Below, one piece after another: positions 5,400-55,000 of a stretch of 64,000 bases of DNA. The position numbers and the translations under genes were made by a program. Each line of letters begins with the position of its first letter. The stretch's first letter is position 1. The stretch comes from Cymbomonas tetramitiformis (lineage: Eukaryota; Chlorophyta; Pyramimonadophyceae; Pyramimonadales; Pyramimonadaceae), in assembly GCA_001247695.2 (NCBI GenBank), contig LGRX02033392.1, positions 1 through 64,000 of the forward strand, read 5' to 3'. The notes below the pieces were generated by a model. It ran no database searches. It saw only the letters and a program-made list of their open reading frames with translations, and was not told where the DNA came from.

Positions 5400-6074
5400 T
5401 ATAGGCAGCCCTGACTGGGAGTCCCGGTTAGGCCCCTATGACAGATCCCTAGGACCAACACTGGACTGCTGACTGATCTGTAGGTTCGTACTGTGACACA
5501 CGCTGTGTCACAGGTAGGCTAGACTCCGAGACCGTCCGAGACCGTTCCGGGTATATCTAGCTTAGGGTTTATTTATCTTATACAGTTTATCCACACGAGT
5601 ACGGGACTTTCTGATATCTAGTGTACTTGGATATTCCGGTAGGTCGTGGCCCCATCCACGTTTTCATTCCACTTGCTATCTTGGCCATGATTGGCTAAGC
5701 AGCCGCTTGAAGAGGTGGTGCGCACTTGCGCGTTTGGGTGCGGCTAGGATTTGGACATGACTTTACGGTAGACGTCTCTTGCGGCTGCGAGTCATGGGCA
5801 CCGCGCGTTGCTATTGCTCGGTTTTGGCAATGTTCATTTACGTTATCTTACCTGCCCTGATCCCGCTGGTTTACGTACTTTGGGCTGGTGCTCCGGACAC
5901 CTTTGACCACGACGACATTTGCAAGTGCCCCACGCTTGTTTCGCCTCTCCGCACGTTCCGCCGTTACGTCTTCACTCCATTTCCGCCACAACACCCAAAC
6001 GTGCAGCCGCGCATCATCTTTTCTCTGGCTTTCTACAGTATGGCAACATCTACTCGAGCTCGCAAGCGCCTATT
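5400..6074 (+). mobile_element. LTR-retrotransposon 5' remnant: LTR end, leader and first gag codons
   Basis: Sequence up to about 5640 resembles an LTR end (GGATATTCCGGTAGG). It is followed by TGGCCCCATCC, a likely tRNA primer-binding site, and by a leader containing TTGGCCATGATTGGCTAA. The TRIM at 11834-12451 has the same order (TATATCCAACAGG, TGGCCCCACGC, TTTGGCCATGTCTGGCTAA), which identifies the family. A start codon at 6040 opens a gag-like N-terminus (MATSTRARKR). LINE sequence then begins at about 6075 and closes the gag frame. The left LTR boundary is uncertain because no partner LTR is visible. Confidence 0.6.
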
Positions 6075-9000: not shown

Positions 9001-9448
9001 GCAAGCCAAAAAGGCTGCCCGCACTCTACCGTTTGCCGCGCTCCAACCCAAACTCAATGAAACAGCAGCCACATGGAGATTGCGATTGCATGAAAATTAT
9101 GTAATAATCAGAAATGCTTTTCAAAAAAGCAGAGACACCGACATTGAACGACGCAAACTTCGAGAAAAAGAAGCCTTGCAGCATCTTTTCTCAACTAACC
9201 TTTCGAGGTTTCTAGACACAGTCATGGGAAAGATGAAACCTACTGAAAAAGGTGCAGCCGCTACCCCAGGTAGTGATGGAAAGATACCTGAGACAAAGAC
9301 AGAAAGACTAAACACAACACTAGATGAATACAAAAATAAAAATTATTTTCTACTAACCCGAATGAGCCAGATGAACTCCCACAGTGGCTCACTGACATTC
9401 TCAAGGATAGCCCTAAAATCCCCGATACGGCCGCCGCGAGACTACTGA
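6075..9448 (+). pseudogene. LINE polyprotein: unknown region plus APE-type endonuclease (copy A)
   Basis: The frame is open for over 1,100 codons. The first 370 or so codons hold an unrecognised domain ending in a Lys/Arg/His-rich stretch (YRRKHSHKQK), probably nucleic-acid binding. From about 7185 to 7960 the APE endonuclease signatures appear in order: N in MNMMRGLR, E in ISETK, ASGYMND, D and N in GDKN, and SDH. In LINEs this enzyme nicks target DNA to prime reverse transcription. A long linker follows to about 9350, where a one-base shift puts the reverse transcriptase in another frame. The frame is also open upstream of 6075 into LTR leader, which is accidental. Confidence 0.85.
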
Positions 9449-10645
9449 CAGAAATCACGCACAAAGAACTTCAACAAGCATACTCGGACTGTGGTATCTC
9501 CACAGCACCAGGACCCTCAGGAATGAGATACTCGCAGTGGATCAAGGGCCCAGAGAATTTTCAAGAAGTTACTGTCTCACTTTTTAACCACATTCTTATA
9601 ACTGGGAGATTTCCTAAGAGTGCAAAATCTGGAGTCATCCTTCCAATCCCTAAAAACCCCTCTGCACAATGTACAATAGATAATTCCAGACCTCTCACAA
9701 TGTTGGAAACGGGTCTTAAACTATTTAACACAATAATTGCTAACCGTCTCAAAACAATACTTAACACCCACCCCATTCTCTTTCCCATTCAAGATGCCTT
9801 TCTTCCGAATAAAAACATAGATGACTCACTCCAAATTTTGAATGAAGTAATATCGGATGCCAATAGATACGACAAAGACCTCCACGTAGTTTACCTGGAC
9901 CTCAAACAAGCATTTGACAGAGCTGAATTCTGGATGAGCAATTTAGCGCTCAGAAAGTTAGGACTCCCATCACAAATAATTAACATCATCTCAGACATCA
10001 CCAATGATGCCTCTAGAATGGTACTCGCTGAAGAAGGCCTCACAGATGAATGGTCCCTCGAATGTGGAGTTCCTCAGGGAGAAGTTTTGAGCCCACTAAG
10101 GTTTGTAGCCATTATGGACATCTTGGCAATTTGGTTAGCAAAAAGAGCAAACGGTGTAAACCCGACAGGAACCACATATGGATATGAACTGAACTCGGAA
10201 CGCCATAGACCAGACAAACCAGGAAATAATATTATTCCTCCCTCCCAAAACCTATTAGAAAAGGACACCACTTTAAATATCTTTGCACGGTTCTTCTGTG
10301 ATGACATCATTCTCGTGGGGAAAACTAAAGACGAATTTCAAGACATGCTAGGTATAGTTAATGAATTTATGAGCTTCATCGGTATTCCCATCAATGTTAA
10401 GAAATCCAAATACTCTTACAGAAAGCGCATCAAACCTCAGGGCAAAACGGTAACGCGATATGACCCGTCCGATGATTTACTCATCTCAGGGGGTCATCTG
10501 GAGCCCAATACAAATGACTCAAGTCCTTCCATTGATTCGAAATGGAAACCCTCTGAGTCACCAGAATTCCTCGATTTCTCCAGCAGCAAAGAGGTAAACA
10601 GATATCTCGGAGTATGGTTTGCACTAAATGGGGAATGGGACAAGT
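9361..10645 (+). pseudogene. LINE reverse transcriptase domain (copy A)
   Basis: In the shifted frame an APGPSGMRYSQW motif at about 9505-9540 opens a non-LTR reverse transcriptase. It is followed by RPLTMLETGLKLF, DLKQAFDR, GVPQGEVLSPLR and the catalytic FCDD (Asp codons at 10300-10305), then a conserved YLGVWF. All catalytic aspartates are present. The domain is cut at about 10645 before the thumb, and the open frame then runs by chance into LTR leader. Copy B carries the missing downstream part but lacks this domain, so neither copy can encode a full enzyme. Confidence 0.92.
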
Positions 10646-13640: not shown

Positions 13641-13719
13641 GGTACTCGGATAATAATAATAATTATTATTATTATAAGTATTATAATTATTATAATTATT
13701 ATAATTATTATCTAGCAAA

Positions 13720-14080
13720 GGGGACAAAGTCCCGAGAGTGCGGTATCCCTGCAAAGCAGGCTAGTGAAAACACCAGGGGCTACTCCCTCTGCTACAGCGC
13801 GCCCACAAAAAGGGGCTCAGCCCGCTTGTCAGCGGGGTGACATCTAGAGAAAAAGCAAAGTGCTAAAAAACTCTAGAAGATGGAGAAGCAGCCATGGCCG
13901 GGTGAGTGGAGGGGAGGCTGATTCTGAATGGTGGGGAAGGAAGTCGAAGAATTCAGGGGGTTTTTGGAGACGTTGAGAAAGGTGGTCGTGGTGAGGGGAC
14001 CGGGAGGGGGAGGGACGGCCCCTCCCCTTGGGGACTCGTTGGGGGCCGGGAGTTTACACTCCCAGCTCCCAACCCATCCA
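13720..14080 (-). other. Structured LINE 3' UTR (copy E)
   Basis: On the minus strand the same hairpins occur in the same order as in copies B, C and D: a GGGAGT...ACTCCC hairpin just after the stop codon, a C-rich tract, CCCGC/GCGGG, GCCC/GGGC, CCTGC/GCAGG and GGGAC/GTCCC. The stem sequences differ from the other copies but still pair. Confidence 0.75.
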
Positions 14081-14100
14081 ATATTGCAAGTCTTTGAAAA

Positions 14101-14698
14101 TTATTGCAAGAGAGTTTGAAGGAAATCAATTGACTGTTGAACGGCTTCTGTTTCTGACATGGTTTCATTGCTTGGAATGTCAACTGTGTGTGGGTCAGTG
14201 TTTAAGGTGGTGGTTGTGCTTAATTTAAACACGTCTCGCCTGTTTTTGGTGTGTTGCCTGCAAACTCTTGAGAGTTTTTTGAGAAGTGGTTTAATCTTAC
14301 CACGGGGTACACCTATCGTGTTGAGAACGGAACCAAAAAGAGGGGGGAGGTATCCCATGAGTGTAAGAGCTTTGGGCCATTTCACAGTGCTCATGAAGGT
14401 CTTGGAATTTGCATTGGTGCCACCATAATAGGACTCATTATCACTCTGACGGTAAGGAGGGTCTTGAGTAGGCCATGGACGGAGTGAAAAGGGAAGTACT
14501 TCGTCCCTTTCGTTCATAACTTCTTTCCAAATATCAGTGCTAACTCCTGTGTATTCAAGTCTCTTCTTCGTGATCTTAGACTTGGGAAGGACGTTGAGAA
14601 ACCATCTGGCAATCTTTTTCTGCGTAGACCTCCAGTCAAAGGCTGGTTGGATGTCACTGGGTGCGCTGTCTATAGATATAATTACAACATCCGAAAAG
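14101..14698 (-). pseudogene. LINE polyprotein C-terminus (copy E)
   Basis: The minus-strand frame matches the C-termini of copies B, C and D, including PAFDWR, WFLNVLPKSK, IKPLLKKLSRVCRQHTK and the terminal FLQTLLQ before the stop at 14101. One frame change occurs near 14517. It is too short to hold any catalytic motif. Confidence 0.85.
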
Positions 14699-15056
14699 TC
14701 CTAACGTAGAGCAAAATCAGCCAAATCGAAATTTCGAAATCTAACGTAGAGCAAATTCACAAAAAATGCAAATCAATTTTCCAAGTAAATTCATTCCACA
14801 AGAAACAACACATTTCCATTCGATACTTAACTGTCATACGAAATCTAACGTAGAGCAAAAAAACAAAATTTTCAAAATTCGAAATCCAGCATCCCGAAGA
14901 CTGAAATCTGAAATTTAACGCAGAGCAAAATCAGCCAAATCGAAATTTCGAAATCTAACGTAGAGCAAATTCACAAAAAATGCAAAATCGACTTATCAAG
15001 TAAATCCATTTCACATGCAACAATGCTTTTCAATTTGGTATTTAAACCTGGAATCT
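14699..15056. repeat. 214-bp tandem repeat, AT-rich, about 1.7 copies
   Basis: The phrase GCAAAATCAGCCAAATCGAA starts at 14711 and again at 14925, giving a 214-bp period. A shorter phrase, TAACGTAGAGCAAA, recurs several times within each unit. There is no coding potential. The repeat directly abuts the 5' break of LINE copy E. Confidence 0.8.
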
Positions 15057-19425: not shown

Positions 19426-19910
19426 CAGTTAAAGCAATGAACGTGGGGAGATGGCGTTTGCTCACCCAAGATGTCGCGCTCTTTACAACTTCGTGTAGGG
19501 AAAAGGTTCAGAATTGAGGCGAAAACCAAAGTAAATATGCCTCTACCATGTCTTGTAGGATAATTGCGCTCTCCAAAATGGGCGGGGGGGATGATCACGC
19601 TGCACACGCTGCATTTTTATCACCAGATAAACAGCAGAGAGGACTTGGAAAAGGCAGTGAGATTTACGGCTGTTTTCTTGGTTTTGGCATAAAAGACCGG
19701 GGTCTCTGAGCTTCTAAAATGTAACAAACCTCGAATAATCGAATCTCGATCGCTTCGGCCGCGGCTCAGAGACTCCGGTTCCGGAGTAACAGCAGACTAC
19801 GCGCACGATGTCACCAATGAGCAATGAGGCGGTGACACTCCGGTGCGACTGCGGAAGATGGTTTTGGCATTTCCGACTGCCACTGGCCGAAGTGTCCCCG
19901 AACGGCCAGC

Positions 19911-20905
19911 CATATTCAAATTGAATGCCCAGGACGCAACAACAGCTTAAGTGACCTTAGAGCAACTCAGGATGCTGAGCTGAGGAAAATTATTGCTGAA
20001 GGAATTTCAGGCGAGCCTAAACCGTCCTAAATCCTGGTAAGGGTACCACATATATCCAATCAAAACCATCGAAACTCTTCCCTCTTGCTGACCTCAGACG
20101 GGATATGGATGATGAATTATACTTACACGCTCTACCGGAAGCCATGTATCGACCATCAACTTCAAAAAAGAATACCATTGCTGTGTCTGCTAAACCGGAA
20201 GCGGACCCTGTCACGGGAGCAATTAAATACCCCGAACTTCAATATGTCCGAAGAAAACTAAGAGTTTTGGAAACTTCTGGCATGGCACCGCCTCTCAATG
20301 ATCCGTAAGACGAATATCCCTCCTTCAAGAACCTTTACCGCACCAGGGCTATTTATTAAGGAAGATATTCAAAACCTCAGTAGCACATCTGCTGAGATTG
20401 CGGGACTGCGATTCCTGCTCACAGAACAAAAGGAGAAACTTCTCAAATCCATGACTCCAATGGCGCATGCCATTGACTCCATGGCCGCAATTTCTGCTGT
20501 AACAAAGGATGGCAGATCCATGAGTGCCCGTGACAAACTCCGTGAAGTCAACCGCAGAGATGTGCAGGCTGTCCGCCTACTACTAGAAGAACTTGGCTTC
20601 TACAGTGAAAGGGATCACAGTAAAATCATCCTCAAATGGATAAGAGGTCACAATAATGACAAAGTTCACGACAGAGTGGATCGGACTGCCAAAAGAGCCT
20701 CATTCAGAGGGGGTTGCTTAGACATTCCTCGCTACGATCCGGTCGAAGAATTGCCTTTCTCATTGTTCTTTTTCGAGGCTCCCATCTTATGTGATATCCG
20801 CAGTCACATTCGAAGAATCCAACGTCTCTCACACTATCATAACTGGAAAACCCCTCAGTCTCAAGGAAAGTACCTGAGAATGCTCAATGAGAATAACATC
20901 AAAAA
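19911..20905 (+). pseudogene. Two shuffled LINE fragments
   Basis: 19911-20292 matches the LINE region from the zinc finger to the start of the methyltransferase-like domain. 20293-20905 matches the RNase H region, which in an intact element lies upstream of it. The order is therefore swapped at a junction near 20295. The second piece keeps three of the four RNase H acidic residues, the E in SAEIAGL, the D in AIDSMAA and the D in VDRTAKRA. It ends where it would approach the zinc finger. Neither piece can work alone. Confidence 0.8.
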
Positions 20906-23463: not shown

Positions 23464-23703
23464 GTATTTTCTTTCACCTTACAACTCTATGCATCAACAC
23501 AGCATACATCGATATGAAAACAAACAACAGTACATTTATGTGTGCTGACCAATACTATTTCCAGTACCGTGTGCTGGCCCGAAGGATTACAACAGTACCT
23601 TTCTGTGCTGACAGATACTTTTTACAGTACAGTGTGCTGATCGGAACATTTAACACAGCCCTTTTCTCTCTTAAACTGCTGCTTTACCTTACATTGCTGG
23701 GGT

Positions 23704-25605
23704 ATGATCCCCTCTTACTCACTGACCTGCTATGGTGGTAAAATTGCTAAAGGTTACCATACTTTTCACCTGAACATTCACAAGCACATTACTTTTAAGT
23801 CTGCACTGCCCTCTTCTCTTTTTTACAGTGCCAAGCATAAGCCCTGTATGAGAGCCTTAATTGGAGTGCTAACAAAGCCGGTACCCCTACTGAATTCACA
23901 ACACACCAGTGTTTACCTGTCTCTAAACTGCTACCGCATCCCTCACCCAAAATTGTTTTCTATACCTGGTAGCTCTCAGTATTTGTCAACACCTTACTTG
24001 CACTCATTCTGCTTTCACTTTCTTTTGTATGCCTGCAAAAAAGGCTTTGAATCTTACTCCTCCGATACCGACACCTGGAGTTGTGAAATCCTTAAGCTAA
24101 TTTCTTTTGCCACTTACTCTTGGTGTCACATATGTTTATGCACCTGCTTTATAGCTAGAACAGTTTTACAACTAAACTTAAAACACTTCCGGGACAACTT
24201 AACACATACAACCGACTGCAATAATAATGTTTTAACAACATACACTTTTCTGTCAGACAACAATGTATACACCCCTGAAGCGGGAAAAACCATAAACCAA
24301 ACCTCCATACCCCCTTGTAACAATACTTATCTTAGTACAGTTCGGACAATAAACAACCCGACATGTTTATCAAAGTATAACACAAACAGAGCTTATCACT
24401 TCGGGACAATAGTCAGTACCGAAGGAGACATATCCGATACTACACACAACCCGAAGCGGAAGACAGTAAACACCGTCATACGGACAGTTAACTTAACACA
24501 ATATATTTATCAAAACTACAAACAGTTCGCTGCCTCCACCTCTAAGCGGTTTATGACAAACTTATTTTGGCTTTCAAATAACTTAAGACGGCACAAAATT
24601 TTTCATGCACGGAAAGCTAACAGTTTCAAACAAACAGCAGATAACCCCGAATATATGACGGAGATAACATTACGAGAAGAAAACAGAAAAGCAATAACCG
24701 CAGTAGGGAAATGGGTGGGAAACCCTAAACCGCAGGGCCGATACCTAAGCATAATAAGCGGCATAGAAGTGGACAGAGCCAAAAATGACTGGAAATATTT
24801 CACCCAATGTCCATATACGATACAACGAGGTGAGAAAATAAATATGAGCAACAATGAACAAACTTGGGCCAAAAGCGAATTGTACCGTACACAATTCGCT
24901 AAAAATCGAAGTTTTGGAAAAATGACCCAAGCCCCAGAATATTTGGTAGAAACAACATGGATACCTATCCGAAATGATATATGCAAACAAACTGCCGAAA
25001 ACCCCAGATTACAGCCAGGAAAATGGGAAAATAAGAGTGTAACACGTTACATGAACGGTAAGGCAATAAGAAAAGAGAGCACATACGGGCATGACATATC
25101 GCAAAACAATAGTAAAAAGCACACACTAATAGAATTGACAACCTCATACACAGATATAACAGACAACACAACCGAAAAAGGGAAATGGATGGCAAACCCT
25201 AAGCTCTCGGTGTGTCCCCTAATGTCCAAAAGCGTCATAATAGATGATAATGTTAGAATTAAATGGAAATACTTCACCCTAAGCTTATACATGCCACAAC
25301 GAGGCGGGGGAATGAAAATGAGCGAGAAAGGACAACTTTGGGTCACAAGCGAATTGCATGAGATACAATTCGTAAAAATTCTGACTTTTGGAAAAAAGAC
25401 CCGATTATCGAAATTTTTCAGAGGAAAGTACCCTGCGTACATACGAAATGACCTGTGCACCCGAAAAGCTAAAATATTCTGTATACGGAAAGGGAGATGG
25501 GATAAGGAAAGTGTAACGCGTTACACGGAATTTATGGGAGACGGCAATATGTGCTTATACGGGACTAAAATGCTGGAAACCTCTCTGAAAGTGAAATGGA
25601 AATAA
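23704..25605 (+). CDS. Long unknown ORF with internal duplication, overlapping the LINE ORF
   Basis: The frame has 633 codons and uses the same AC-rich codons as the LINE. The first 150 codons are Cys/Phe/Tyr-rich and may not be translated. The second half contains two copies of a 158-residue unit (GKWVGNPK... and GKWMANPK...), matching a 474-bp tandem duplication at 24706 and 25180. It ends in the phrase ATGGAAATAA, whose first three bases start the protease-endonuclease ORF, so the two overlap by 10 bases. That layout suggests stop-and-restart translation within one mRNA, and that this is an upstream ORF of the element. No family is recognised. Confidence 0.5.
   Translation: MIPSYSLTCYGGKIAKGYHTFHLNIHKHITFKSALPSSLFYSAKHKPCMRALIGVLTKPVPLLNSQHTSVYLSLNCYRIPHPKLFSIPGSSQYLSTPYLHSFCFHFLLYACKKGFESYSSDTDTWSCEILKLISFATYSWCHICLCTCFIARTVLQLNLKHFRDNLTHTTDCNNNVLTTYTFLSDNNVYTPEAGKTINQTSIPPCNNTYLSTVRTINNPTCLSKYNTNRAYHFGTIVSTEGDISDTTHNPKRKTVNTVIRTVNLTQYIYQNYKQFAASTSKRFMTNLFWLSNNLRRHKIFHARKANSFKQTADNPEYMTEITLREENRKAITAVGKWVGNPKPQGRYLSIISGIEVDRAKNDWKYFTQCPYTIQRGEKINMSNNEQTWAKSELYRTQFAKNRSFGKMTQAPEYLVETTWIPIRNDICKQTAENPRLQPGKWENKSVTRYMNGKAIRKESTYGHDISQNNSKKHTLIELTTSYTDITDNTTEKGKWMANPKLSVCPLMSKSVIIDDNVRIKWKYFTLSLYMPQRGGGMKMSEKGQLWVTSELHEIQFVKILTFGKKTRLSKFFRGKYPAYIRNDLCTRKAKIFCIRKGRWDKESVTRYTEFMGDGNMCLYGTKMLETSLKVKWK
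24706..25565 (+). repeat. 474-bp in-frame tandem duplication
   Basis: GGGAAATGG begins units at 24706 and 25180, exactly 474 bases (158 codons) apart. The units align along their length, including WKYFT, PQRG/IQRG, SEL...QF and GTRKA/CTRKA-like segments. They have diverged considerably yet both remain open, which suggests selection on the protein. Confidence 0.75.
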
Positions 25606-28465
25606 AAATTGATAAAGACATAAGCGGCAGCATAATCATGATGTACTACATAATGCGCCACCTACTGAGATGTGCAGAAATTCTCAAAAGAAGACAAGCA
25701 GACTCACAAGCAGTCAACTGTGGGCTTTCCGTTATGCTTACCCATTTGATGGCGGGGCTTGGCAGAATGAGGCGACACACCGTGCAATATTTCCCGGGCC
25801 CCAGAGTGATTTTACAACTAGCACACAAAAGACAAAAGGCTTGTAAACATATAAGAAAGGATGCCTTGAAATACATGATCAAGAACCCACAGAGAGTATG
25901 GCTCTGGGAAATTGCACGGACTCGGAATACAAGAAAATCCAATATGAAAGCTCCTTTCAGCAAAATAAGGCACAAGCCCCACTGCAAGATGGAAAACAAT
26001 ACCAAACAACACAATAAACCTATACCCGAACAGATGCTAAGCGGTGGAGCTGGCACCGAAGGCAATAAGGCGGATGGAAATGAAACACCCGGTGAATCAA
26101 TTTACTCGGAAAAAGGATGGATAAAAGCCTCCCATGTCGGTGATGCAATGAGATTCCGAGACCCGAGCACAATTGCCCCTATGGACTTCACCGACCTGAT
26201 ATCCAAGATGACAATGATGGACCAAAACTTCACAAAAATCATAAACAGTAGACTTAAGAAATACGGTCACACACAGATAGGCATGTGCGATAACACTCAC
26301 TGGCGGCTCCTCATGATCCGAGTTTCACAATACGGGAAAATAGAAGCCTATATATATGACCCCTTAGGAGATAAAGCGGACAAGGGAATTGTCACCATGT
26401 TTGCGGAGGTACTCAAGACCTGGCTGGAAAATCTTACAACCATTACTGACCACAATGAATACACAATTATCATTAACAAGGACACATACCAAACAGACAC
26501 ATACAATTGCGGTACATGGGTAGCAAAAACTGCATTCAGATGGGCTCAATGGAACAGAGGCTCACACATGCTCCCATTCTTTGAGTACCTAAAATGTGAC
26601 CTTCACGGAGGAGAGCACGGCGACACAATAATGCAAAAGGAAATACACAGATATCGATTAGAAATCAGGAAAGAAGTGGGAATGCTGACTGAAGGTACCT
26701 ATAACACAACCGAGCCCAACAACCTGGAGTCTATTGGAACTGACACTGTAAGCAACGGCTCAAATATGACCTCCTCCCCCCGCCACACACTTACACGGAA
26801 AGGTGCTACACCTACAAGTCATATAGAAACTTTGATAAACCAGCTCAAACTAGGGTGGAAAACACACACCACCTACGGAACAATTGTTGCAGAAATCATT
26901 GAATCACACCGAAAATATCATCACACCTCGGACACAGGGAACATCAGTACACAAACCCACCTTTTGGAGAACAATGGTATCTGGGCAACCGCAATCCATA
27001 CAATCCCCGAAAGAATGATTATTTACTGTGATTTTGATACCATGCCCAACAGACACCAGAAAGACAACTTATCATCTTTTCCGCAAGAATTTACTGTGCA
27101 CCGCATAAACCTGAAGTTGGGGGTACACCCGAATAATGCGGGGGTTCTCAATTTTGCACTAGCCCACAAGGTCTCTCACATCCTACACAACACCAAATTC
27201 ACTACCATAGTGCAATTAAACAGAGACCTGCTATACGAACTTGAAAAACTAAATATCAGAATCCTCCCACAAACGGGTAGAGATGCTAAGAAAACCAAAC
27301 ACGAAAATAACAATGCCATTTCGATAGTACGACAGTCGCTCAGAAATTACCTCCCGAAATCTCACACACATTCAACAAGGAAAAATTCTGTGAACCAAAA
27401 TCGAAAGACCATCGACACGACTGATTCCAACTGCCTCACACTGGGCAATGGAAAGTACTCTTGTACACCTCCTACCTATGGATACCGAAGGAAACACTCT
27501 CATAAACAAAAGAGTTTAATCCTTAAAACCAAATGCACAAGCAAAATTTTTGACTTTGAGAACAGTTATGATATAAATGGTAGGTGCTTACTACAAAAAG
27601 CAAAACACAAAAGTGCCATTATACAGCTGGAAGAAATAGACAGGCTCTCAAAACTACAATTAGCACAACACTCGGACAATCTGATTATAATGGGTATGAA
27701 TATGAGAGGCCTACGCCACCACAAAGAGGACAAGGACAGTCTGATCAAACTAGAAACAATCTGTAATCTGTTAAATGACAAACGGGCTGACATAATATGC
27801 ATATCAGAAACCAAGGTGAACACTGAAAGCCTTGCATTAATCAAAACCCTGATGACCCAAAAAGGAATCCAATTCCGCACATCTCATGTAAATGAAAGAG
27901 CCTCTATAGGCTCAATGATCCTATGGAATCCGAAGAGCCTACCGCTAGCCACCTCGGTTACCACAATAGATGGAGATGCTAAGAGAGCAGTAATGACCAA
28001 ATTTTCAGGAAAAAGCGGGTTTGAACTCTACATAGCTAGTGGCTACATGAATGATGCCACACTAGTAGACGAGCAACTGGAATTATACGACACACTCACT
28101 GACTGGGCAGGTAAAGCTGGAAATAATCCAAATAAGGCCTACATAGAGATAGGTGATAAAAACTGTACCATTACCCCGAATCAACGGGTGACTGGTGGTA
28201 ATTACATGTCATACCAAGAGCATGCTGAAAAGAATAAGTACCTGCTAACATATTTCAACAATGACAGATGCCCACTCAAGGAACTGGTAATGGACCGCAA
28301 CCCAAACACAGAAATTTTCACACATGTTATATCCAAAAATTCAAAAGCAAAACTCACTCATACCATGGCCAACACAACCATGGCTGAATTGACAGTTAAA
28401 TCTGGATGGACAGAGGAAAACCCTTACATCATTTCTGATCACGGGATAGTGTGGGCTGAATTTAA
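25596..28465 (+). CDS. LINE polyprotein N-terminal half: Ulp1-type protease and APE endonuclease (copy B)
   Basis: Residues 1-230 are unrecognised. A C48 (Ulp1/SENP) cysteine protease follows with the catalytic set in the right order and spacing: His235 (in NTHWRLL), Asp255 (in IYDPLGD), Gln299 and Cys305 (in QTDTYNCGTW). Ulp1 enzymes cut SUMO or similar conjugates; here it may process the polyprotein or alter host SUMO marks. A region of unknown function (about 340-690) with a basic YRRKHSHKQK stretch comes next. The APE endonuclease (about 700-955) has MNMRGLR, ISETK, ASGYMND, GDKN and SDHGIVWAEF, all intact. Insertion of a MITE at 28466 ends the frame in a stop at 28484. The domain order fits a non-LTR retrotransposon with an added protease. 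Confidence 0.9.
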
Positions 28466-29005
28466 CCCCTTAGCTGCCAGCTGATGGACATGTCCATCAT
28501 ACACTCAAAATCGATTTTCTCGGCGACAAATAACTCAAATTCACTTTTGAAGACAGTTTTAAAAAGCTCTCATCGAGCCGCATGCAGCCATGCACTTGGG
28601 AGCAACCATGTTGCGACGATGCTCTAAATATTTTCCCAGACGCACTCTATTTTAGCTTGACCATAATGAGTTACATCTAGGGCACACGTGTCGTAGTGTT
28701 ACAAGCCCCTAATAATATAAGCAGCCCTAACCGCATGTTGAGCGCTTGGTAAGATTATACCTGGAGGTATAGGGTCAATATTAGGGCTTACATTGTTAAC
28801 GATGTGCACATCCATCAACATTTTTCAGTTGACAATCACGTCGTCGGTATCAAGTGTCATGTATTTTCAACGTTTGCATATGATTCGCCTTGAGAAGACC
28901 TTTCCGACAGTATTTTCAAAAGTTGAGGCAGGACCCTTATACCAAAGTTATTGTAATTAAACCTAAATTTTCAAAACCCAGAAGATTCCTCCGGCAGCTA
29001 AGGGG
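28466..29005. mobile_element. 540-bp piggyBac-type MITE
   Basis: The insert has perfect 13-bp inverted ends (CCCCTTAGCTGCC) and is flanked on both sides by TTAA (28462-28465 and 29006-29009). Copy A is uninterrupted at this point (GAATTTAAGCTCCC, about 7955), which gives the empty site. TTAA targets with CCC...GGG ends are the hallmark of piggyBac transposons. The body has no coding capacity, so a transposase elsewhere must have moved it. Confidence 0.92.
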
Positions 29006-29009
29006 TTAA

Positions 29010-30058
29010 ACTCCCCAAGGGTAATACTAAACCTGATATACCTTCGGATACCACTAAGACAACACCTAAATTCAATGGTGCAAAGGAAATCACACACGAT
29101 GAGTACCCAGGGTACCCTATCAGAATGATAAATAATAACACAGAAGCTACAAAGAGAATCAATTAAAAAAGAGATTGCAGGACTCCTTACAGCAAATGGG
29201 TACAGCATGAACGAACTTGTGCACGCATGCAAAAACAGAAACAAAGCAAGAGCTGCAATCAGCATCATCAAAGGTGACACCACCGATCTCGATCTGAGAC
29301 GTGTGAATACAGATGGCAGCCCCATAACTGCGAACAAGCTCATAGCAAACAGTGAAGAGACAGATAATATAGAACAATGTTTAAAATGGCACAACAAATC
29401 CAAAGAATGGTGGATTCACTTCAACAGTCCATGGCATGCAGCTCATTTACTCTCCAGAGGAAAGGGGATGCCAGAAGGTGCTTTCAACTTAGGTCATAAT
29501 GATGAGGACAATACGTGGCACATAGGGTCACCTCATCTTCTAAGTAAGAAAGATGTCAATGCCTATCTAAAACGTCACCTTTCATTCAGCTCACTGGAGG
29601 TAAGGAAAATCATGAAAACCAGCACAGATGATTCTATGATCTGCTGGGATATCCTTCTGCAACCCCATATGCCAGCCAAATTCTGGAATCTGTACGGATC
29701 CGAGATACATTCAAATGAAATAGACTGTACTGCCCTCCTCTTCAAATACGCTACAGGCTGGGTATCGTACACTGAAAGACTGCACAGCACACTCGAAACT
29801 GAACTCGGACCAGATACAGCAAGCATGGACTGCAATAGCCAAAAGGAAATAAATCCTGACACAACATGGGATACCCTCCACAAACTTGCGCATCAGGCGG
29901 CTAGTCATGCTTTTGGTACCAAGTCTTTGAGCAGATTTGGTAAGTCTGACAAACCATCAGCGGTATCAAATTATATTTACAAATGGCTAAACACAGTGCG
30001 TCGCATAATCAAATATTTACATTCAAGAACCCATGCTGTTAACATTCCCAAGTAAGCC
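29010..30058 (+). pseudogene. LINE polyprotein linker between endonuclease and RT (copy B)
   Basis: The coding sequence resumes after the MITE and matches 7960-9000 of copy A. A frame break occurs near 29165 (AATCAATTAAAAAAG against an uninterrupted copy A). An open stretch then runs from about 29168 to 30055, where it stops at CCCAAGTAAGCC. That is where copy A continues into the reverse transcriptase. No known domain lies in this linker. Confidence 0.8.
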
Positions 30059-33000
30059 ATCAAAGTTACATCAGCAATTGCTAATTCCACAAATAATGTT
30101 GCAATTGAATTAGACAAAATTATAGCTTCGTTCATAATTAAATACCTGAGTTGCCCCGCTGACACCAATCATCAAATAATTTGGACAGCTGTCTCCCAGG
30201 GGGGGTACGGCATTGATAGCGTATTCGATGTTGCAACTGCGTCGTGCATTACTGAAACCATGAACACCCTCTGCTCTGTAGATGAACATAAATATTGGCA
30301 ACACAACCACACTGACCGTATCACTGATCCCCATCTCATCTCACTATACCGTAGGAACAGTAACTTATGGCTTAAAATAATGATTTGCAACATGAACAAT
30401 GAAATGCGTAATAGTTCTATCTCGGGATTCCCCCTCTCCCACTATGCAACATACAGCCACACAAAAGACAAGCGCTTCAACTGGTTCAAGCGTACAAGCC
30501 ACATTATGGCCAAACTTGGATACGCTATCGACTCTAAAAATTACCCTGAAAATGAAGCAGGTGAAACTGCCTTGGTCACCTCTCTCCCCAGACAACTCTA
30601 CATGTCAAGAAATGTAACCTCCGCAATCCAAAAATATAACCTAAAGCACACTGGTTCATTTCTGACTCCTTGTGGTGGAATGCTTAAGAACTGGCAAGAA
30701 AGCAAGACCTTTTTTAGGTTGAATGGTAATAGACCTCCTGAATGGCTCACTGTAATTGAGAAAGAGATGCTTCAAAACCCTGCAGATCCGGACCCACAGG
30801 CAAGATATGTCAAGAAACAATACAGGGACACCATAGTACCTCCCGACACGGGTGAATTTCACTGGAGAGGCAATGGTGACAAAGATTCCATCTCCCTTAT
30901 TTACATCACCAGTATTGACATAGAGGCCGGGACAATTCAATATACGGAATATAATAACAACGTCAGAAACCCTAAAACCTTTAACAGAATTGAAGGCACA
31001 AAATGCCTCCAATATGATTTTGAATACAGTATTACGGATGATGGCTGCATCTTAATCCCAGCTGGTCTCAGTATTGAATATAATGGCAATACGGATCCAC
31101 CTCCTGAAGTCCTTGCCAAAGTCAATGATATTAAAATACACTATGATTACATCTCCGACAGGCAGCATGAAACTATTATTGCCAGAATGAAAAACAAAAC
31201 TGCGGAGGAAAATAGTGAATTCAGCTGCCCCAGTGATTCGGAGGAAGAAACCTTTCCCCACAATGAAAAGAGAAACCAAATGGAGGATTATGATATGGCA
31301 AGCGACGGCTCGCTGTTTGCGGGCAAGAATTCTGCATGTAGTGGTGCAGCGTATGCCATAAAAAACTTCGACAACGGGGTGCCATTAATTCGCAAGATGA
31401 ATATACCTCCTTCAAGAACCTTTACTGCATCAGGGGTTTTTGTAAAGAAAGATATCCAAAACCCCAGCAGCACATCTGCTGAGATTGCGGGACTGCGATT
31501 TCTGCTTACAGAGCAAAAAGAGAGGCTTCTCAAATCCATGACCCCAATGGTGCATGCTATTGACTCCATGGCCGCAATTTCAGCGGTCACAAAGGATGGT
31601 AGATCCATGAGTGCCCGTGACAAACTTCGAGAAGCCAACCGCAGAGATGTGCAGGCTGTCCGCCTACTTCTAGAAGAACTTGGCTTCTACACTGAAGGGG
31701 ACCACAGCAAAATTATTCTCAAATGGATAAGAGGACACAATAATGATAAAGTTCATGATAGAGTGGACCGGACTGCCAAAAGAGCCTCGTTCAGAGGGGG
31801 TTGCTATGATATATCTCGCTACGATCCGGCAAAAGAACTACCCTTCTCACTGTTCTTTTTTGAGGTTCCTATTTTAGGTGATATCCGTAGTCACATTAGA
31901 ATAATTCAGCGTCTATCACATTATCATAACTGGAAAGCTCTTCAGTATCAAGGAAAGTATCTGAGAATGCTAAATGAGAATAATATCACCCCCATTAAAG
32001 ACATTTCTAAAATTACTCCTAAGACGTTCACTGCCACTAGAAGCAGAGAACTTCTGGGCCTTCAAGCCTCTCCAGCACGTTCATTCAAATTGGGGAAATT
32101 CGAAACGGAAACCTGCCCTCACTGCCAAGTTAATACTAAATGCACCTTTGAACACATCCAACTTGAATGCTCAGGACCCAATAACAGCCTGAGTGACCTT
32201 AGAGCTGCTCAGGATGCCGAGCTGAGGAAAATTATAGCTGAAGAAATTCCAGGCGAGCCTAAACTCCTAAACCCTGGAAAGGGTACCACATATATCCAAA
32301 CAAAACCATCAAAACTTTTCCCTCTTGCCGACCTTGGAAAGGATATGGATGAGGAATTATACTTGCATGCCCTTCCGGAAGCTAGCATGTACCGACCATC
32401 AAATACAAAAAAGAACACCATTGCGGTGTCTGCTAAACCAGAAGTGAACCCCGACACAGGAACGGTTAAATACCCCGAGCTTCAGTATGTCCGAAGAAAA
32501 GAGTTTTGGAAACTCCTGGCATGGCACCGCCTTTCAAACAGAGAAATCCCATGTTCACTTGAGGAGTACTCGAACAGGGCTCATGACACGCATAGAGCGC
32601 TCAATGCATGTAAATTTGAATCAGGCGACCCTAAGAATTGCTACGCAATAAGAAGATGCCTCTTGGATATCTTGGTCGATGACAGAAACCTGGATAAAAA
32701 TGGATGTGAACTCTTTTCAAACCCACTAAATGCTCATCCCAGAATCCACTCAAAGAGATGTATTCCCACCGAAAGAATGAAAACTGCCCTCAGGCCCTTC
32801 TGTCATCAAGGAAGAATAGGCTTTGATGGTCTCGCTTGGGATGCCTATGTTGACCCGATTACAGGCATTGGTAGAATCGTCTATGGCAATCCCCCCTTCG
32901 ATGGCAAAGATAAAGGGAAATCATCGGCAGTCATGACTACCTTGGAAATGGGCCATAAAGCGGCTAACACCGTCCCTGGATTTTCTGGTACATGGATCTT

Positions 33001-33766
33001 GCCGTTGTCCCCTAAAAACCAAAAAAGATGGTTTGATAAAGGCTTTAAACTTGTTTTCAGATTCCCGCACAACACCATTCCATTTATCCCGCATGGCTAT
33101 TGGACGGGTGATGACCCTTATGTGCTCCCAGGTGGTGGATGCTACAAGGACGATTACTCTGATGTTGTCATTATAGCCATAGATAGTGCACCCACTGATA
33201 CCAACCCAGCTTTTGATTGGAGACCCACTCAGAAAAAGATAGCAAGATGGTTCCTAAATGTTCTCCCCAAATCCAAAGTCACAAAAAAGAGATTAGAACA
33301 CACAGGAGTTAGCTTTGATATCTGGGAAGAAGTTATTAAGGAAAGAGACGAGGTACTTCCTTCCTCTCTCTGTCCATGGCCCACTCAAGATCCCCTTCGC
33401 CAATATGACGCTGTGTCTTATTATGGAGGTCACCACGACACGACAGTCACCGATACAAACTCCAAACCCTTTAGGAACGCTGTGAGATGGCCTAAAGTCC
33501 TTACACTTATGGGATACCTCCCCCCTGCATATAGCATCGTCCTTGGCGCAGTAGGTGTTCCCTGCAGAAAGATCAAACCACTTCTCAAGAAACTTTCGAG
33601 AGTCTGTAGGCAGCACACCAAAATTAGGCGTGATATGTTTCTGTTTAACACCCTCAATACTTCGAACACTGACCCGCACACAATTAATATTCCAAGCGAT
33701 GAAACCATGACTGAAATGGAAGCAGTACAACAGTCAAATGAATTTCTTCAAACCCTTCTACAGTAA
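30059..33766 (+). CDS. LINE polyprotein C-terminal half: RNase H, zinc finger, NPPF methyltransferase-like domain (copy B)
   Basis: The frame is open for 1,236 codons; as a part of a polyprotein it needs no start of its own. It begins with the reverse transcriptase thumb (WTAVSQGGYGI). RNase H spans about 31290-31800 with the four acidic residues in MASDGS (31304), SAEIAGL (31481), AIDSMAA (31562) and VDRTAKR (31766). A CCHC finger follows at 32113-32168 (CPHC, then H, then C). The last 420 residues contain FDGLAWDAYVDP, then VYGNPPFDG (NPPF at 32888-32899), then WILPLSP. NPPF/Y is the catalytic motif of N6-adenine methyltransferases, including Dam-type DNA enzymes and the mRNA-cap enzyme PCIF1. 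I cannot tell which family this is, or whether it is active. Confidence 0.85.
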   Translation: MKVTSAIANSTNNVAIELDKIIASFIIKYLSCPADTNHQIIWTAVSQGGYGIDSVFDVATASCITETMNTLCSVDEHKYWQHNHTDRITDPHLISLYRRNSNLWLKIMICNMNNEMRNSSISGFPLSHYATYSHTKDKRFNWFKRTSHIMAKLGYAIDSKNYPENEAGETALVTSLPRQLYMSRNVTSAIQKYNLKHTGSFLTPCGGMLKNWQESKTFFRLNGNRPPEWLTVIEKEMLQNPADPDPQARYVKKQYRDTIVPPDTGEFHWRGNGDKDSISLIYITSIDIEAGTIQYTEYNNNVRNPKTFNRIEGTKCLQYDFEYSITDDGCILIPAGLSIEYNGNTDPPPEVLAKVNDIKIHYDYISDRQHETIIARMKNKTAEENSEFSCPSDSEEETFPHNEKRNQMEDYDMASDGSLFAGKNSACSGAAYAIKNFDNGVPLIRKMNIPPSRTFTASGVFVKKDIQNPSSTSAEIAGLRFLLTEQKERLLKSMTPMVHAIDSMAAISAVTKDGRSMSARDKLREANRRDVQAVRLLLEELGFYTEGDHSKIILKWIRGHNNDKVHDRVDRTAKRASFRGGCYDISRYDPAKELPFSLFFFEVPILGDIRSHIRIIQRLSHYHNWKALQYQGKYLRMLNENNITPIKDISKITPKTFTATRSRELLGLQASPARSFKLGKFETETCPHCQVNTKCTFEHIQLECSGPNNSLSDLRAAQDAELRKIIAEEIPGEPKLLNPGKGTTYIQTKPSKLFPLADLGKDMDEELYLHALPEASMYRPSNTKKNTIAVSAKPEVNPDTGTVKYPELQYVRRKEFWKLLAWHRLSNREIPCSLEEYSNRAHDTHRALNACKFESGDPKNCYAIRRCLLDILVDDRNLDKNGCELFSNPLNAHPRIHSKRCIPTERMKTALRPFCHQGRIGFDGLAWDAYVDPITGIGRIVYGNPPFDGKDKGKSSAVMTTLEMGHKAANTVPGFSGTWILPLSPKNQKRWFDKGFKLVFRFPHNTIPFIPHGYWTGDDPYVLPGGGCYKDDYSDVVIIAIDSAPTDTNPAFDWRPTQKKIARWFLNVLPKSKVTKKRLEHTGVSFDIWEEVIKERDEVLPSSLCPWPTQDPLRQYDAVSYYGGHHDTTVTDTNSKPFRNAVRWPKVLTLMGYLPPAYSIVLGAVGVPCRKIKPLLKKLSRVCRQHTKIRRDMFLFNTLNTSNTDPHTINIPSDETMTEMEAVQQSNEFLQTLLQ

Positions 33767-34196
33767 ATTATCAAAAATTGCAACTAAAAATGACTTGGGG
33801 GCTTGGGAGTGCAAACTCCTGGCCCCCAACGGGATACATAGGGAAGGGGCCGTCCCCCCTCCCCTCCCCCCACCCCTTCCCCCCTGCCCCCCTATCCACC
33901 TTCTCTACGTCTCCAATAACCCTTCAGCCTTCGTCTTCCCTCCCCACCGCTCAGATTCAGCCTCCCCACCACCCTCCGGCCAAGGCTGCATCTCCTCCTT
34001 CTAGAGCTTTTTGCACTTAGCCCTGTGCTTTTTCTCTAGATGTGGCCTCGATGATGAGTCGAGATGAGCCCTCTGGGCGCGCTGTAGTAGTGGGAGTAGC
34101 CCCTTGTGTTTTCACAAGCCTGCTGGGCAGGGTTACCGCACTCCCAGGACTTGGTCCCTTCTGCTAGCGTAAATGTTATATTATTATTATTATTAT
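33767..34196 (+). other. Structured LINE 3' UTR with (TTA)n tail (copy B)
   Basis: Directly after the stop is a strong hairpin (GGGGGC-TTGGGAGT paired with ACTCCTGGCCCCC). A 50-base C-rich tract follows, then CTCGA/TCGAG, GCCC/GGGC, TTGTG/CACAA, CCTGC/GCAGG and GGAC/GTCC hairpins. GGGAGT and ACTCCC enclose the last set. The UTR ends GCTAGCGTAAATGTTATATTATT... in a TTA repeat. The same layout in copies C, D and E suggests it is the RNA structure recognised by the reverse transcriptase. Confidence 0.8.
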
Positions 34197-34198
34197 TA

Positions 34199-35987
34199 TT
34201 AACATCACCCCCACTAAAGACACTTCCAAAATCACACCTAAAACTTTCACTGCCTCTAGAAGCAGAGAACTTCTGGGCCTTCAAGCTTCACCGGCACGCT
34301 CATTTAGGATGGGGAAAACCGAATCAGAAAACTGCCCTTACTGCCAACCAAATACCAAATGCACCTTTGAACACATCCAACTTGAATGCCCAGGACACAA
34401 CAATAGCTTGAATGACCTTAGAGCTACTCAGGATGCTGAGCTGAGGAAAATCATTGCTGAAGAAATTTCAGGAGAGCCTAAACTCCTAAACCCTGGTAAG
34501 GGTACCACATATATTAAAACAAAACCGTCGGAACTTTTCCCTCTTGCTCACCTTAGACAGGATAAGGATGGTGAATTATACCTACACGCCCTACCTGAAG
34601 CCAGCATGTATCGTCCATCAAATTCAAAAAAAAGTACCATAGCTGTGTCTGCTAAACCGGTAACGGACCCTGACACGGGAACCGTTAAATACCCCGAACT
34701 CCAATATGTCCAAAGGAAAGAGTTTTGGAAACTTCTGGCTTGGCACCGCCTTTCCAACAAAGCAGTTCCATGTTCACTTGAGGAGTACTCGGATAGGGCC
34801 CATGACATCCATAGAGCGCTCAATGCATGCAAGTTTGAATCGGGCGATCCTAAAAACTGCTACGCAATTAGAAGATGCCTCTTAGATATTTTGGTCGACG
34901 ACAGAAACCTAGACAAAAATGGATGCGAACTCTTCTCCAACCCACTAAATGCCCACCCCAGAATTTACTCAAGAAGATGTATACCCACCGCAAGAATGAA
35001 AAAAGCCCTCAGGCCCTTTTGCCATCATGGGAAAATTGGCTTCGATGGTCTCGCTTGGGATGCCTATGTCGACCCGATGACAGGCACTGGCAGGGTTGTT
35101 TATGGTAATCCCCCTTTCGATGGTAAAGATAAGGGGGAATCCTCGGCAGTGATGACCACCTTAGAAATGGGCCATAAAGCGGCAAACACTGTCCCTGGAT
35201 TTTCAGGAATATGGATCCTTCCTTTGTCTCCCAAAAACTAAAAAAGATGGTTTGATAAAGGCTTCAAACTTGTTTTCAGATTCCCGCATAACACTATCCC
35301 ATTCATTCCACATGGCTACTGGACGGGTGATGACCCTTATGTTCTTCCAGGGGGTGGATGCTGTAAGGATGACTTTTCGGATCATTATAGCTATAGACAG
35401 TGCACCCAGTGATACCAAACCAGCTTTTAACTGGAGGCCCACACAAAAAAAGATAGCCAAATGGTTTTTAAATGTCCTTCCCAAGTCCAAAGTCACAAAG
35501 AAGAGATTAGAATACACGGGAGTTAGCTATGATATCTGGAAGGAAGTCATTAATGAAAGAGACAAGGTACTTCCCTCCTCACTCTGCCCATGGCCCACTC
35601 AAGACCCCTCTCATCATCAAGATGACATTAAGTCTTATTATGGTGGCCACCACGACACGACGATCACCAATGCTAACTCCAAGCCCTTCAGGAGCGCTGT
35701 GAAATGGCCCAAAGTCCTTACACTCATGGAGAACTTCCCTCCTCTATTTGGTACTGTTCTCAACACGATATATAGGGGTTTCCCGCGGAAAGACTAAACC
35801 ACTACTCAAGAAACTCTCCAGAATATGTAGGCAACACACCAAAAACAGGCGAGATATGTTTCTGCTAAACACTTCCATCGCATTAAACACGGACCCACAC
35901 ACAGTCGTCATTCCAAGCGATGAAACTCTGACAGAAGCAGAAGCAGTTCAAAAGTCGAATGACTTCCTACTTACCCTCTTGCACTAA
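34199..35987 (+). pseudogene. LINE zinc finger and NPPF methyltransferase-like domain (copy C)
   Basis: The frame holds the CCHC finger (CPYC, H, C at 34327-34390) and the NPPF motif (35107-35118) in the same surroundings as copy B (FDGLAWDAYVDP, VYGNPPFDG). A TAA stop at 35239 replaces the CAA of copy B in the phrase PKNQKRWFDKG. A deletion near 35375 shifts frame, and another shift occurs near 35770. The C-terminus (LLKKLSRICRQHTK) is recognisable to the stop at 35987. Confidence 0.85.
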
Positions 35988-36485
35988 TTTTCAAAGATTT
36001 GCAATTTAGAAATTCTCCAAGCCTTATTGCAATGGCTGGCGTTATAAAACAATAGGTCGAATTCTTGCTGGCTTTTAGGGTCTTAGGGCTCAGGTGGGGA
36101 CTGGGGGCGTCAACCCCCGGTCTCCGATTACCGGGAGGGACCCCCCTCCCCTCCCCTCCACCCTCCCTTTCCTCCGCCTTCCCTGGCCCTCGTCTCCTTC
36201 GTGCTCGGACCCCCTCGTTCTTCGACTTCCTTCCCCACCACCTTTAGATACAGCCACCCATCCACCTACCCGGCCACGGCTGTTATCTCTATCCTCTAGA
36301 TTTTTTTGCGCTTGCCCTGAGCTTTTTCTCCAGTTGTTTCCCCGTCAGATAACGGGATGAGCCCCCTCCTGGGGGCGCGCTATAGCAGTGGGAGTAGCCC
36401 CTTGTGTTTACCACTTGCCTGCTTAGCAGGGTAACTGCACTCTCAGGACATTGTCCTTTCTGCTAGCGTAAATGTTCTATTATTC
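35988..36485 (+). other. Structured LINE 3' UTR (copy C)
   Basis: The UTR has the same order of hairpins as copy B with different stem bases: GGGGACTGGGGG paired with CCCCCGGTCTCC, CCCGT/ACGGG, GCCCCC/GGGGGC, CCTGC/GCAGG and GGAC/GTCC. The C-rich tract is present. The tail is short (TCTATTATT). Confidence 0.75.
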
Positions 36486-37717
36486 TCTCAAACAAAGCAA
36501 TTCCATGTTCACTTCAAGAGTACTCGAATAGGGCCCATGATATTCATGTAGCACTTAATGCATGAAAATTTGGATCGGGCGACCCTAAAAACTGCTACGC
36601 AATAAGAAGATGTCTTTTAGATATTCTGGTCGATGACAGAAACCTGGACAAAAATGGATGCGAACTCTTCTCAAACCCACTAAATGCTCACCCTAGAATT
36701 CACTCTAGCAGATGACTGAAAGAATGAAAACTGCCCTCAGGCCTTTCTGTCATCAAGGAAAAATAGGCTTTGATGGTCTCGCTTGGGATGCTTATGTTGA
36801 CCCGCTTACAGGCATTGGTAGAATCGTCTATGGCAATCCCCCTTTCGACGGCAAAGATAAAGGGAAATCATCGGCAGTCATGACTACTTTGGAAATGGGC
36901 CATAAAGCGGCTAACACCGTCCCTGGATTTTCAGGAACATGGATCTTACCGTTGTCCCCTAAAAACTAAAAAAGATGGTTTGATAAAGGCTTTAAACTTG
37001 TTTTCAGATTCCCGTACAACACAACGTTTTCACATTCCATTCATCCCACATGGCTATTGGACGGGTGAAGACCCCTATGTTCTCCCAGGTGGTGGATGCT
37101 ATAAGGATGATTATTCGGATGGTGTCATTATAGCCATAGCCAGCAGTGCACCTAATGACACCAAACCAGCCTTTGATTGGAGGCCCACGCAAAGAAAGAT
37201 AGCCAGATGGTTTTTATATGTTCTCCCTAAGTCCAAAGTCACGAAAAAGAGATTAGAATACACCGGGGTTAGCTTTGATATCTGGGAAGAAGTTATTAAT
37301 GAGAGAGACAAGATTCTTCCTTCCTCCCTCTTCCCATGGCCCACTCAAGACCCCCATCCAAATGACATTGAGTCCTATTATGGTGGTCACCATGACACGA
37401 CAATTACCAATACTAACCGTAAACCTTTCAGGAACGCTGTGAGATGGCCCAAAGTTCTTACTACACTTTTGGGATATCTTCCCCGTTCGTATGGCACTGT
37501 CCTCAGCACAATAGGTGTTTCCTGCAGAAAGATTAAACCGCTCCTTAAGAAACTTTCCAGAGTGTGTAGACAACACAGAAAGAAAAGGCGTGATATGTTT
37601 CTGCTTAACACCCCCACTACTTTGAACACCGACCCGCACATTCCAAGCAACGAAACCATGACAGAAATGGAAGCAGTACAACAGTCAAATGAGTTCATTC
37701 AAACTCTCCTACAATAA
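36486..37717 (+). pseudogene. LINE NPPF methyltransferase-like domain (copy D)
   Basis: NPPF is kept at 36835-36846 with the same flanks as in copies B and C. Early stops lie near 36563 and 36715. The TAA at 36967-36969 is at exactly the same codon as in copy C. A small insertion near 37020 shifts frame, after which the C-terminus is open to 37717. It cannot encode a working protein. Confidence 0.85.
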
Positions 37718-38147
37718 GCTTTCAAAAATTGTAACTAGGAATGATTAGGGGGCTGGGAGTGTAAACTCCTGGCCCCCAACGGGACACCAAGGGGCGGGGC
37801 CGTCCCCCCCCCTCCCCTACCCCTCCGCCCCCTTGCCCCCCCTCCCCTAACCACCTTTCCCTTCGTCTTTAAAACCCCCTTAGGCTTCGACCTCCCTCCC
37901 CACCGCCTAGATTCAGCCACCCCTCCACCTTCCCGGCCACGGCTGCATCTCCGACTTCTAGAGTTTTTTCGCTTAGCCCTGTGTTTTTCTCTAGATGTGA
38001 CCTCGCTGATATGTCGAGATGAGCCCTTTGGGCGCGCTGTAGCAGTGGGAGCAGCCCCATGTGATTTCACTAGCCTGCCAGGCAGGGTTACCGCACTCCC
38101 AGGACTTTGTCCCTTCTGCTAGCGTAAATGTTTTATTATTATTATTT
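37718..38147 (+). other. Structured LINE 3' UTR (copy D)
   Basis: The hairpin after the stop (GGGGGCTGGGAGT with ACTCCTGGCCCCC), the C-rich tract and the four downstream hairpins match copies B, C and E. The tail is TTTATTATTATTATTT. Confidence 0.8.
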
Positions 38148-39960: not shown

Positions 39961-40099
39961 GCTGCTTTAACCCTGTCTCGCAGAGAGCGGCGGGTTCCCT
40001 TGCGTTCATATTCTGCTTTCAGGGCGCGGAGAAAGTTCAGGTCAGACTGGTGTGTCACCGCGTCCCCGAAGTCAGCAGCTTCCCCCTTCCTCAGGATGG

Positions 40100-40700: not shown

Positions 40701-40859
40701 ACCGCTGGTTGCTCCTCATGTACTGTCGACTCCCGCTGCTGCGGTTCTAGTGATGGTGACACCGCTGTGGGGCCTTGGTCACCAATGACCGCTGGTTCCT
40801 TTCGCAGCGACATACTCCTTGTTACTCTGCGCGAGGGTGTAACTGTCTTCTGCGCTGCA

Positions 40860-41692: not shown

Positions 41693-41729
41693 ATCTGCCT
41701 TGGTCAGGCGGGTGAGCGGCTGGGCGATC

Positions 41730-42194: not shown

Positions 42195-42199
42195 AGGGT

Positions 42200-54855: not shown

Positions 54856-55000
54856 CACACATATCGAATTTCCCTTGAATTCGTATCAAAGAGCGTGATT
54901 ATGCAAATCAGCTGCCACGTATAACCAAATCATTCACGGCAAGGTGTGTGCACCTACAACAGGCAAGTGCCGATAGACTAATCCACCATCCTTAATGATC

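What the first reader, a model, noticed from the sequence alone, without database searches (positions are those of the whole stretch)
25596..33766. A LINE with protease, endonuclease, RT, RNase H, zinc finger and a methyltransferase-like domain
Copies A and B are broken in different places, yet overlap, and together give one domain order: Ulp1-type protease (His235, Asp255, Gln299, Cys305), APE endonuclease, reverse transcriptase, RNase H, CCHC finger, NPPF domain. Motifs are seen directly. LINEs with APE-RT-RNase H are well known. A Ulp1 protease at the front and an adenine-methyltransferase-like module at the back of the same element is, as far as I know, not described.
Basis: partly seen in the sequence, partly recalled or inferred. 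Interest (0 to 1): 0.9.

Follow-up and report, generated by a model that had tools for sequence, protein, structure and literature searches.

The report
LINE retrotransposon with PCIF1-like methyltransferase domain
This is an abundant jumping gene (a LINE) of an unnamed eukaryote whose single giant protein joins a Ulp1-like protease, a DNA-nicking enzyme, reverse transcriptase and RNase H to a domain related to PCIF1, the enzyme that methylates the first adenosine of capped mRNA, which suggests that a retrotransposon may carry its own RNA-methylating enzyme.

Summary
Confirmed and sharpened. Copies A and B are broken copies of one LINE family. All parts compared are under purifying selection (dN/dS 0.03-0.32; NPPF domain 0.03).

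Best reading: a Dualen-like LINE with a PCIF1-type methyltransferase-like domain behind RNase H. Methylation of its own capped RNA is inferred, not shown.

The parts
25569..28463 (+). Copy B, N-terminal half of the polyprotein frame (first ATG 25596): Ulp1-like protease through APE
   Evidence: open frame; 72% aa identity to copy A from aa 312 on
26169..26603 (+). Ulp1-like protease domain; His 26298, Asp 26358, Gln 26490, Cys 26508 (first base of each codon)
   Evidence: kept in L027, L030, L039; dN/dS 0.15 against L039
27639..28463 (+). APE-type endonuclease
   Evidence: PF03372 0.0046, below the curated cut-off; dN/dS 0.05
28466..29005 (.). piggyBac-like MITE inserted into copy B, TTAA on both sides; not part of the element
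29132..30055 (+). linker in front of the RT; the RT behind it is deleted in copy B
   Evidence: tblastn of the RT finds only copy A in the window
9340..10520 (+). reverse transcriptase, present in copy A
   Evidence: PF00078 3.6e-23; best solved relatives R2 (80 bits), then L1 (61 bits)
5987..9340 (+). copy A upstream of the RT: end of the Ulp1-like part, APE, linker
30056..33766 (+). copy B, C-terminal half: post-RT region, RNase H, CCHC, NPPF domain, C-tail
31256..31975 (+). RNase H
   Evidence: PF00075 0.0015, below the curated cut-off; dN/dS 0.04 against L039
32114..32170 (+). CCHC knuckle CPHCQVNTKCTFEHIQLEC
32690..33175 (+). PCIF1-type methyltransferase-like domain: ELFSNPLN at 32708, NPPF at 32888
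33767..34203 (+). 3' UTR and (ATT)n tail of copy B
34204..36484 (+). 5'-truncated copy directly behind copy B's tail (CCHC, NPPF domain, 3' end)
36485..38146 (+). 5'-truncated copy directly behind the previous one
13662..14700 (-). 5'-truncated copy on the minus strand, with ATT array
19890..20901 (+). rearranged fragment: CCHC part in front of the RNase H part
23641..25605 (+). possible ORF1 or 5' part of the element, overlapping the start of the main frame
   Evidence: 654-aa open frame; 56% aa identity over the last 61 aa in L030; a 583-aa open frame upstream of L030 (L037); tentative

Best explanation
A high-copy, Dualen-like non-LTR retrotransposon of an unnamed eukaryote. SHOWN: natural copies with one frame of 3128 codons and, in the copy read (L039), the order Ulp1-like protease, APE, RT, RNase H, CCHC, NPPF domain; purifying selection on every domain compared; (ATT)n tails on window copies. 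SUPPORTED by homology through a sister LINE family: the NPPF domain belongs with the PCIF1 (PF12237) methyltransferase domain, and the protease with Ulp1-type peptidases. INFERRED: the element moves by target-primed reverse transcription; the protease cuts the giant polyprotein or removes a ubiquitin-like modifier; RNase H clears the RNA from the hybrid; the PCIF1-like domain acts in cis on the element's own RNA and methylates N6 of an adenosine, most likely the one next to the cap (m6Am), to stabilise or mask it.
Against: No Pfam, PHROGs or PDB match for the NPPF domain. Direct alignment to PCIF1 is not significant: over the whole domain 39 to 731 of 3000 shuffles reach the score and other windows of the frame score as high or higher; only in one of two tests on the part behind NPPF was it low, 8 of 2000 (fish) against 223 of 2000 (human). 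An HMM of sister plus PCIF1 ranked decoys above our domain, hhalign P 0.045. The sister reads NPEY where PCIF1 reads NPPF. The Ulp1-like domain alone has no Pfam match, hhalign to C48 P 0.3. Both AlphaFold models are unusable (pLDDT 34.6, 36.5). No biochemistry. RT position not placed in a tree.
Confidence: 0.62

Rival explanations
1. The C-terminal domain is a Dam-like DNA N6-adenine methyltransferase, like that of DIRS elements, and marks the new cDNA rather than RNA.
For: Dam-like enzymes are known in DIRS retrotransposons (PMC3266345 and PMC5890265 passages); a gypsy element in this window carries one. One of four phage Dam alignments was reached by only 4 of 500 shuffles.
Against: Profile comparison with phage Dam enzymes aligns the wrong parts (P 0.032, 22 columns not containing the NPPF register), while the gypsy Dam passes the same test at P 9.8e-7. 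The sister LINE's equivalent domain hits PCIF1_WW, and PF05869 is not in its Pfam list up to E 1.
Confidence: 0.15
2. The domain keeps the PCIF1 fold but is an RNA- or cap-binding module without methyl transfer.
For: The sister family reads NPEY instead of NPPF, so catalysis need not be kept in the whole group.
Against: In this family NPPF is kept in 15 of 20 copies fetched; of the other five, two read KPPF beside a frameshift, two lack the segment, one reads NSPF. dN/dS 0.03 over the domain.
Confidence: 0.25
3. Protease, RT and NPPF parts come from different families, pieced together by the reader from broken copies.
For: A and B are only 79-81% identical and broken in different places; the Ulp1-like domain is in one copy of the window only.
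Against: One uninterrupted natural frame with all domains; frames of exactly that length at 14 other scored places.
Confidence: 0.02

Closest known systems
Dualen / RandI LINEs (Chlamydomonas and relatives; cryptophytes)
   Same: APE and RT in a LINE (PMC3636483 passage); protease and RNase H as well, by recall of Kojima & Fujiwara 2005; (ATT)n repeat of SINEs paired with them (PMC3747384).
   Different: Dualen has a restriction-like endonuclease at the C-terminus; here no PD...D motif was found behind the CCHC of copy B, and a PCIF1-like domain stands there.
NeSL and Utopia-1_TSP LINEs of nematodes
   Different: They use a restriction-like endonuclease, not APE; no methyltransferase-like domain is mentioned in that paper (term search).
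PCIF1 / CAPAM, cap-specific m6Am methyltransferase
   Same: ELFSNPLN resembles ECFASPLN; NPPF identical; the sister LINE's domain hits PF12237 at 6.9e-20.
   Different: PCIF1 is a host enzyme; here the domain is the end of a retrotransposon polyprotein and too divergent for a direct match.
SymbioLINE-Dnmt, SymbioDIRS-Dnmt3, KnitGypsy-Dnmt3; Dam-like domain of DIRS
   Same: Retrotransposons that took up a methyltransferase (PMC5890265 and PMC3266345 passages).
   Different: Cytosine DNMTs or Dam-like enzymes; in the LINE case the DNMT is in the frame upstream of the RT frame.
L040 sister LINE family of the same genome (3530-aa frame)
   Same: Ulp1-like, APE, RT, PCIF1 domain in that order.
   Different: RT region 21% identical to ours; a second Ulp1-like domain behind the RT; no RNase H in its Pfam list; NPEY for NPPF; true PF12237 match.

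Membership tests
Non-LTR retrotransposon (LINE) with APE | LINE-type reverse transcriptase | tested here: met
   PF00078 3.6e-23 and 7.2e-22 in L039; nearest solved chains R2 and L1
Non-LTR retrotransposon (LINE) with APE | APE endonuclease in front of the RT, in one frame | tested here: met
   catalytic motifs and order in L039; Pfam match in copy B weak, 0.0046, below cut-off
Non-LTR retrotransposon (LINE) with APE | target-primed reverse transcription | not testable with these tools
   5'-truncated copies with common 3' end fit; target site duplications not examined
Dualen / RandI | cysteine protease, APE, RT and RNase H in one protein (definition recalled) | tested here: met
Dualen / RandI | second, restriction-like endonuclease at the C-terminus | tested here: not met
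   motif level only: no PD-x(10-16)-D behind the CCHC of copy B; a divergent one could be missed
Dualen / RandI | RT between the R2-like and L1-like groups in a tree | not tested
   only pairwise scores: R2 80 bits, L1 61 bits
Ulp1 / C48-like protease | His-Asp-Gln-Cys in order and spacing | tested here: met
   0 of 20,000 shuffles (strict), 109 (loose); kept in 4 of 4 copies with the domain
Ulp1 / C48-like protease | profile similarity | tested here: inconclusive
   no direct Pfam match; own alignment vs C48 P 0.3, C48 HMM ranks the window copy first of 1004 but other copies among decoys; met through the sister LINE, P 5.6e-5
PCIF1 methyltransferase domain (PF12237) | profile match over the cut-off | tested here: not met
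   none for our domain; met for the sister LINE
PCIF1 methyltransferase domain (PF12237) | homology through an intermediate member | tested here: met
PCIF1 methyltransferase domain (PF12237) | m6Am activity | not testable with these tools
   needs an assay
Dam-like DNA adenine methyltransferase (PF05869) | profile similarity | tested here: not met

The most novel reading that the evidence does not exclude
At least two deeply split LINE families in one genome encode PCIF1-type methyltransferase domains, and the family studied here keeps the catalytic motif under strong selection: the retrotransposon methylates the cap-adjacent adenosine of its own RNA (m6Am), an RNA-level self-mark written by a mobile element, beside a protease that processes or protects its polyprotein.
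Probability: 0.35. Interest if true: 0.88.

Novelty: new variant of a known kind. Interest (0 to 1): 0.78.

Why it matters
Capture of cytosine and Dam-like methyltransferases by retrotransposons is known and mostly read as DNA marking. A PCIF1-type domain at the end of a LINE polyprotein would move this to RNA: an element that may mark its own transcript at the cap. It also bears on the history of PCIF1, which has been found only in eukaryotes (PMC8868631 passages) and here has mobile relatives with 2094 first-look candidates in one genome. The element is abundant and has uninterrupted copies, so expression and methylation can be tested.

Tried and rejected
Two families pieced together: rejected by the natural 3128-codon frame. 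Dam-like identity: rejected by profile. Restriction-like endonuclease behind the CCHC: not found by motif. Direct PCIF1 assignment: not significant (mixed); only the sister LINE made the link. AlphaFold of the Ulp1-like region (single sequence) and of the NPPF region (6 rows): pLDDT 34.6 and 36.5; the fold search of the first gave nothing at E 0.001, the second was not searched. Relatives outside the genome: none confirmed in viral contigs, genome contigs or plasmids; none in phages for the NPPF region. NCBIfam and PADLOC were not searched. Papers: ten searches. None of the 13 papers listed (of 14) holds both 'non-LTR retrotransposon' and 'PCIF1'; five papers in the 15 listed (of 11,712 holding two of its three terms) hold PCIF1 and retrotransposon, and by title and start of abstract none describes a fusion. 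Most subscription papers are missing from the library, and reviews of eukaryotic adenine methyltransferases that I recall could mention such fusions.

Full report
WHAT IS THERE. Copy B occupies 25569-33766 on the + strand, with a 3' UTR and an (ATT)n tail to about 34203; copy A lies at about 5987-10520. They align in two blocks at 79.0% and 80.8% nucleotide identity. The break between the blocks in B holds a 540-bp piggyBac-like MITE, 28466-29005, with 18-bp inverted ends and TTAA on both sides. B lacks the reverse transcriptase: one frame ends at 30055 and the next opens at 30056 behind the RT. A has the RT (PF00078 3.6e-23); no part of the C-terminal half of B is found behind it. Three further 5'-truncated copies share the 3' end (34204-36484 and 36485-38146 on +, 14700-13662 on -) and one fragment is rearranged (19890-20901). 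The two + copies begin directly behind the copy before them.

THE DECISIVE TEST. The window lies in an assembly of 851,713,466 bases in 25,745 contigs. A probe from 31500-32500 gave 1771 first-look candidates; 40 were scored, 83-100% identical. Of 20 copies fetched (L013-L032), L030 carries all domains in two frames with one shift between them, and L027 carries them in order over several frames; the other 18 show no Ulp1-like part in the stretch held. A search with the Ulp1-like domain listed 150 scored places (2692 candidates); I count 15 in an open frame of exactly 3128 aa. One of these, L039, was read: its frame starts with ATG and holds, in order, Ulp1-like domain aa 192-336, APE 681-955, RT 1417-1809 (FCDD 1735), RNase H 2292-2531, CCHC 2578, NPPF 2836, and ends at 3128. 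Among 150 scored places of the NPPF domain (3255 candidates, 95-100% identical) one lies in a 3128-aa and one in a 3133-aa frame. The two-families rival is refuted.

SELECTION. Between L039 and L030, dN/dS along the protein is 0.18 (N-terminus), 0.17 (Ulp1-like), 0.32 (linker to APE), 0.06 (APE), 0.16 (linker to RT), 0.04 (RT), 0.05 (post-RT), 0.03 (RNase H), 0.13 (CCHC), 0.09, 0.03 (NPPF domain) and 0.16 (C-tail). Between copies of the window the APE gives 0.05, RNase H 0.10 and the NPPF core 0.06. The NPPF domain, 94% identical between subfamilies, is thus constrained as strongly as RT and RNase H. NPPF stands in 15 of 20 fetched copies; of the other five, L013 and L019 read KPPF beside a frameshift, L015 and L024 lack the segment, L029 reads NSPF.

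HOW IT MOST LIKELY WORKS. From general knowledge of LINEs: APE nicks, RT primes on the nick, RNase H clears the hybrid. The tails and 5'-truncated copies fit. Inferred: the protease processes the giant protein or trims ubiquitin-like tags; the PCIF1-like domain methylates N6 of adenosine on the element's RNA, most likely next to the cap. A binding role without catalysis (0.25) and a DNA-marking role (0.15) remain open.

KNOWN OR NEW. Ulp1-like proteases at the front of LINEs are described in nematode NeSL and Utopia-1_TSP (PMC4640811 passages). Dualen/RandI carries APE and a restriction-like endonuclease (PMC3636483 passage), with cysteine protease and RNase H as I recall from Kojima & Fujiwara 2005, which I could not read. 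Dualen is reported in Chlamydomonas relatives and cryptophytes (PMC8226300 and PMC12747079 passages), and (ATT)n is the 3' repeat of several Chlamydomonas SINEs paired with RandI (PMC3747384 table passages). The present element resembles Dualen up to RNase H, but the second endonuclease was not found and a PCIF1-like domain stands in its place; I call it Dualen-like, not a member. APE LINEs without a second endonuclease also end their linker in a CCHC knuckle (PMC5678591 passages). Capture of cytosine and Dam-like methyltransferases by retrotransposons is known (PMC5890265, PMC3266345 passages; PMC6338049 passages). A LINE with a PCIF1-type domain was not found in the held papers, a library without most subscription journals.

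Noticed in passing
L040 (G000:C8199:17300-27200) and 151 PF12237 matches in the genome: A second, abundant LINE family with Ulp1-like, APE, RT, a second Ulp1-like and a true PCIF1_WW domain, in frames of 3529-3533 aa at 12 listed places.
   Followed up: partly
window 39256-42287 (-): A Ty3/gypsy-type element with RNase H (5.4e-27), a Dam-like domain (PF05869 8.1e-6, just under the cut-off) and an integrase zinc-binding domain (6.6e-19); the Dam part matches phage Dam genes in 85 records.
   Followed up: partly
G000, e.g. C18098:65657-66217, C1565:3661-4221, C6019:49254-49622 (L038): The genome holds many Peptidase_C48 matches (629 first-look candidates, 150 scored, all listed over the cut-off) in long open frames, some over 4800 aa, many near 991 aa: other multi-copy families with Ulp1 domains.
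   Followed up: no
window 23641-25605 (+): A 654-aa open frame with two diverged internal repeats overlaps the start of the main frame by 37 bases; it may be the element's ORF1.
   Followed up: partly
window 48147-54929 (-): Probable host gene with ephrin-receptor-like cysteine-rich part and TRP-like region (the latter under the cut-off); a 369-bp tandem repeat, 98% alike, lies in its open frame.
   Followed up: no
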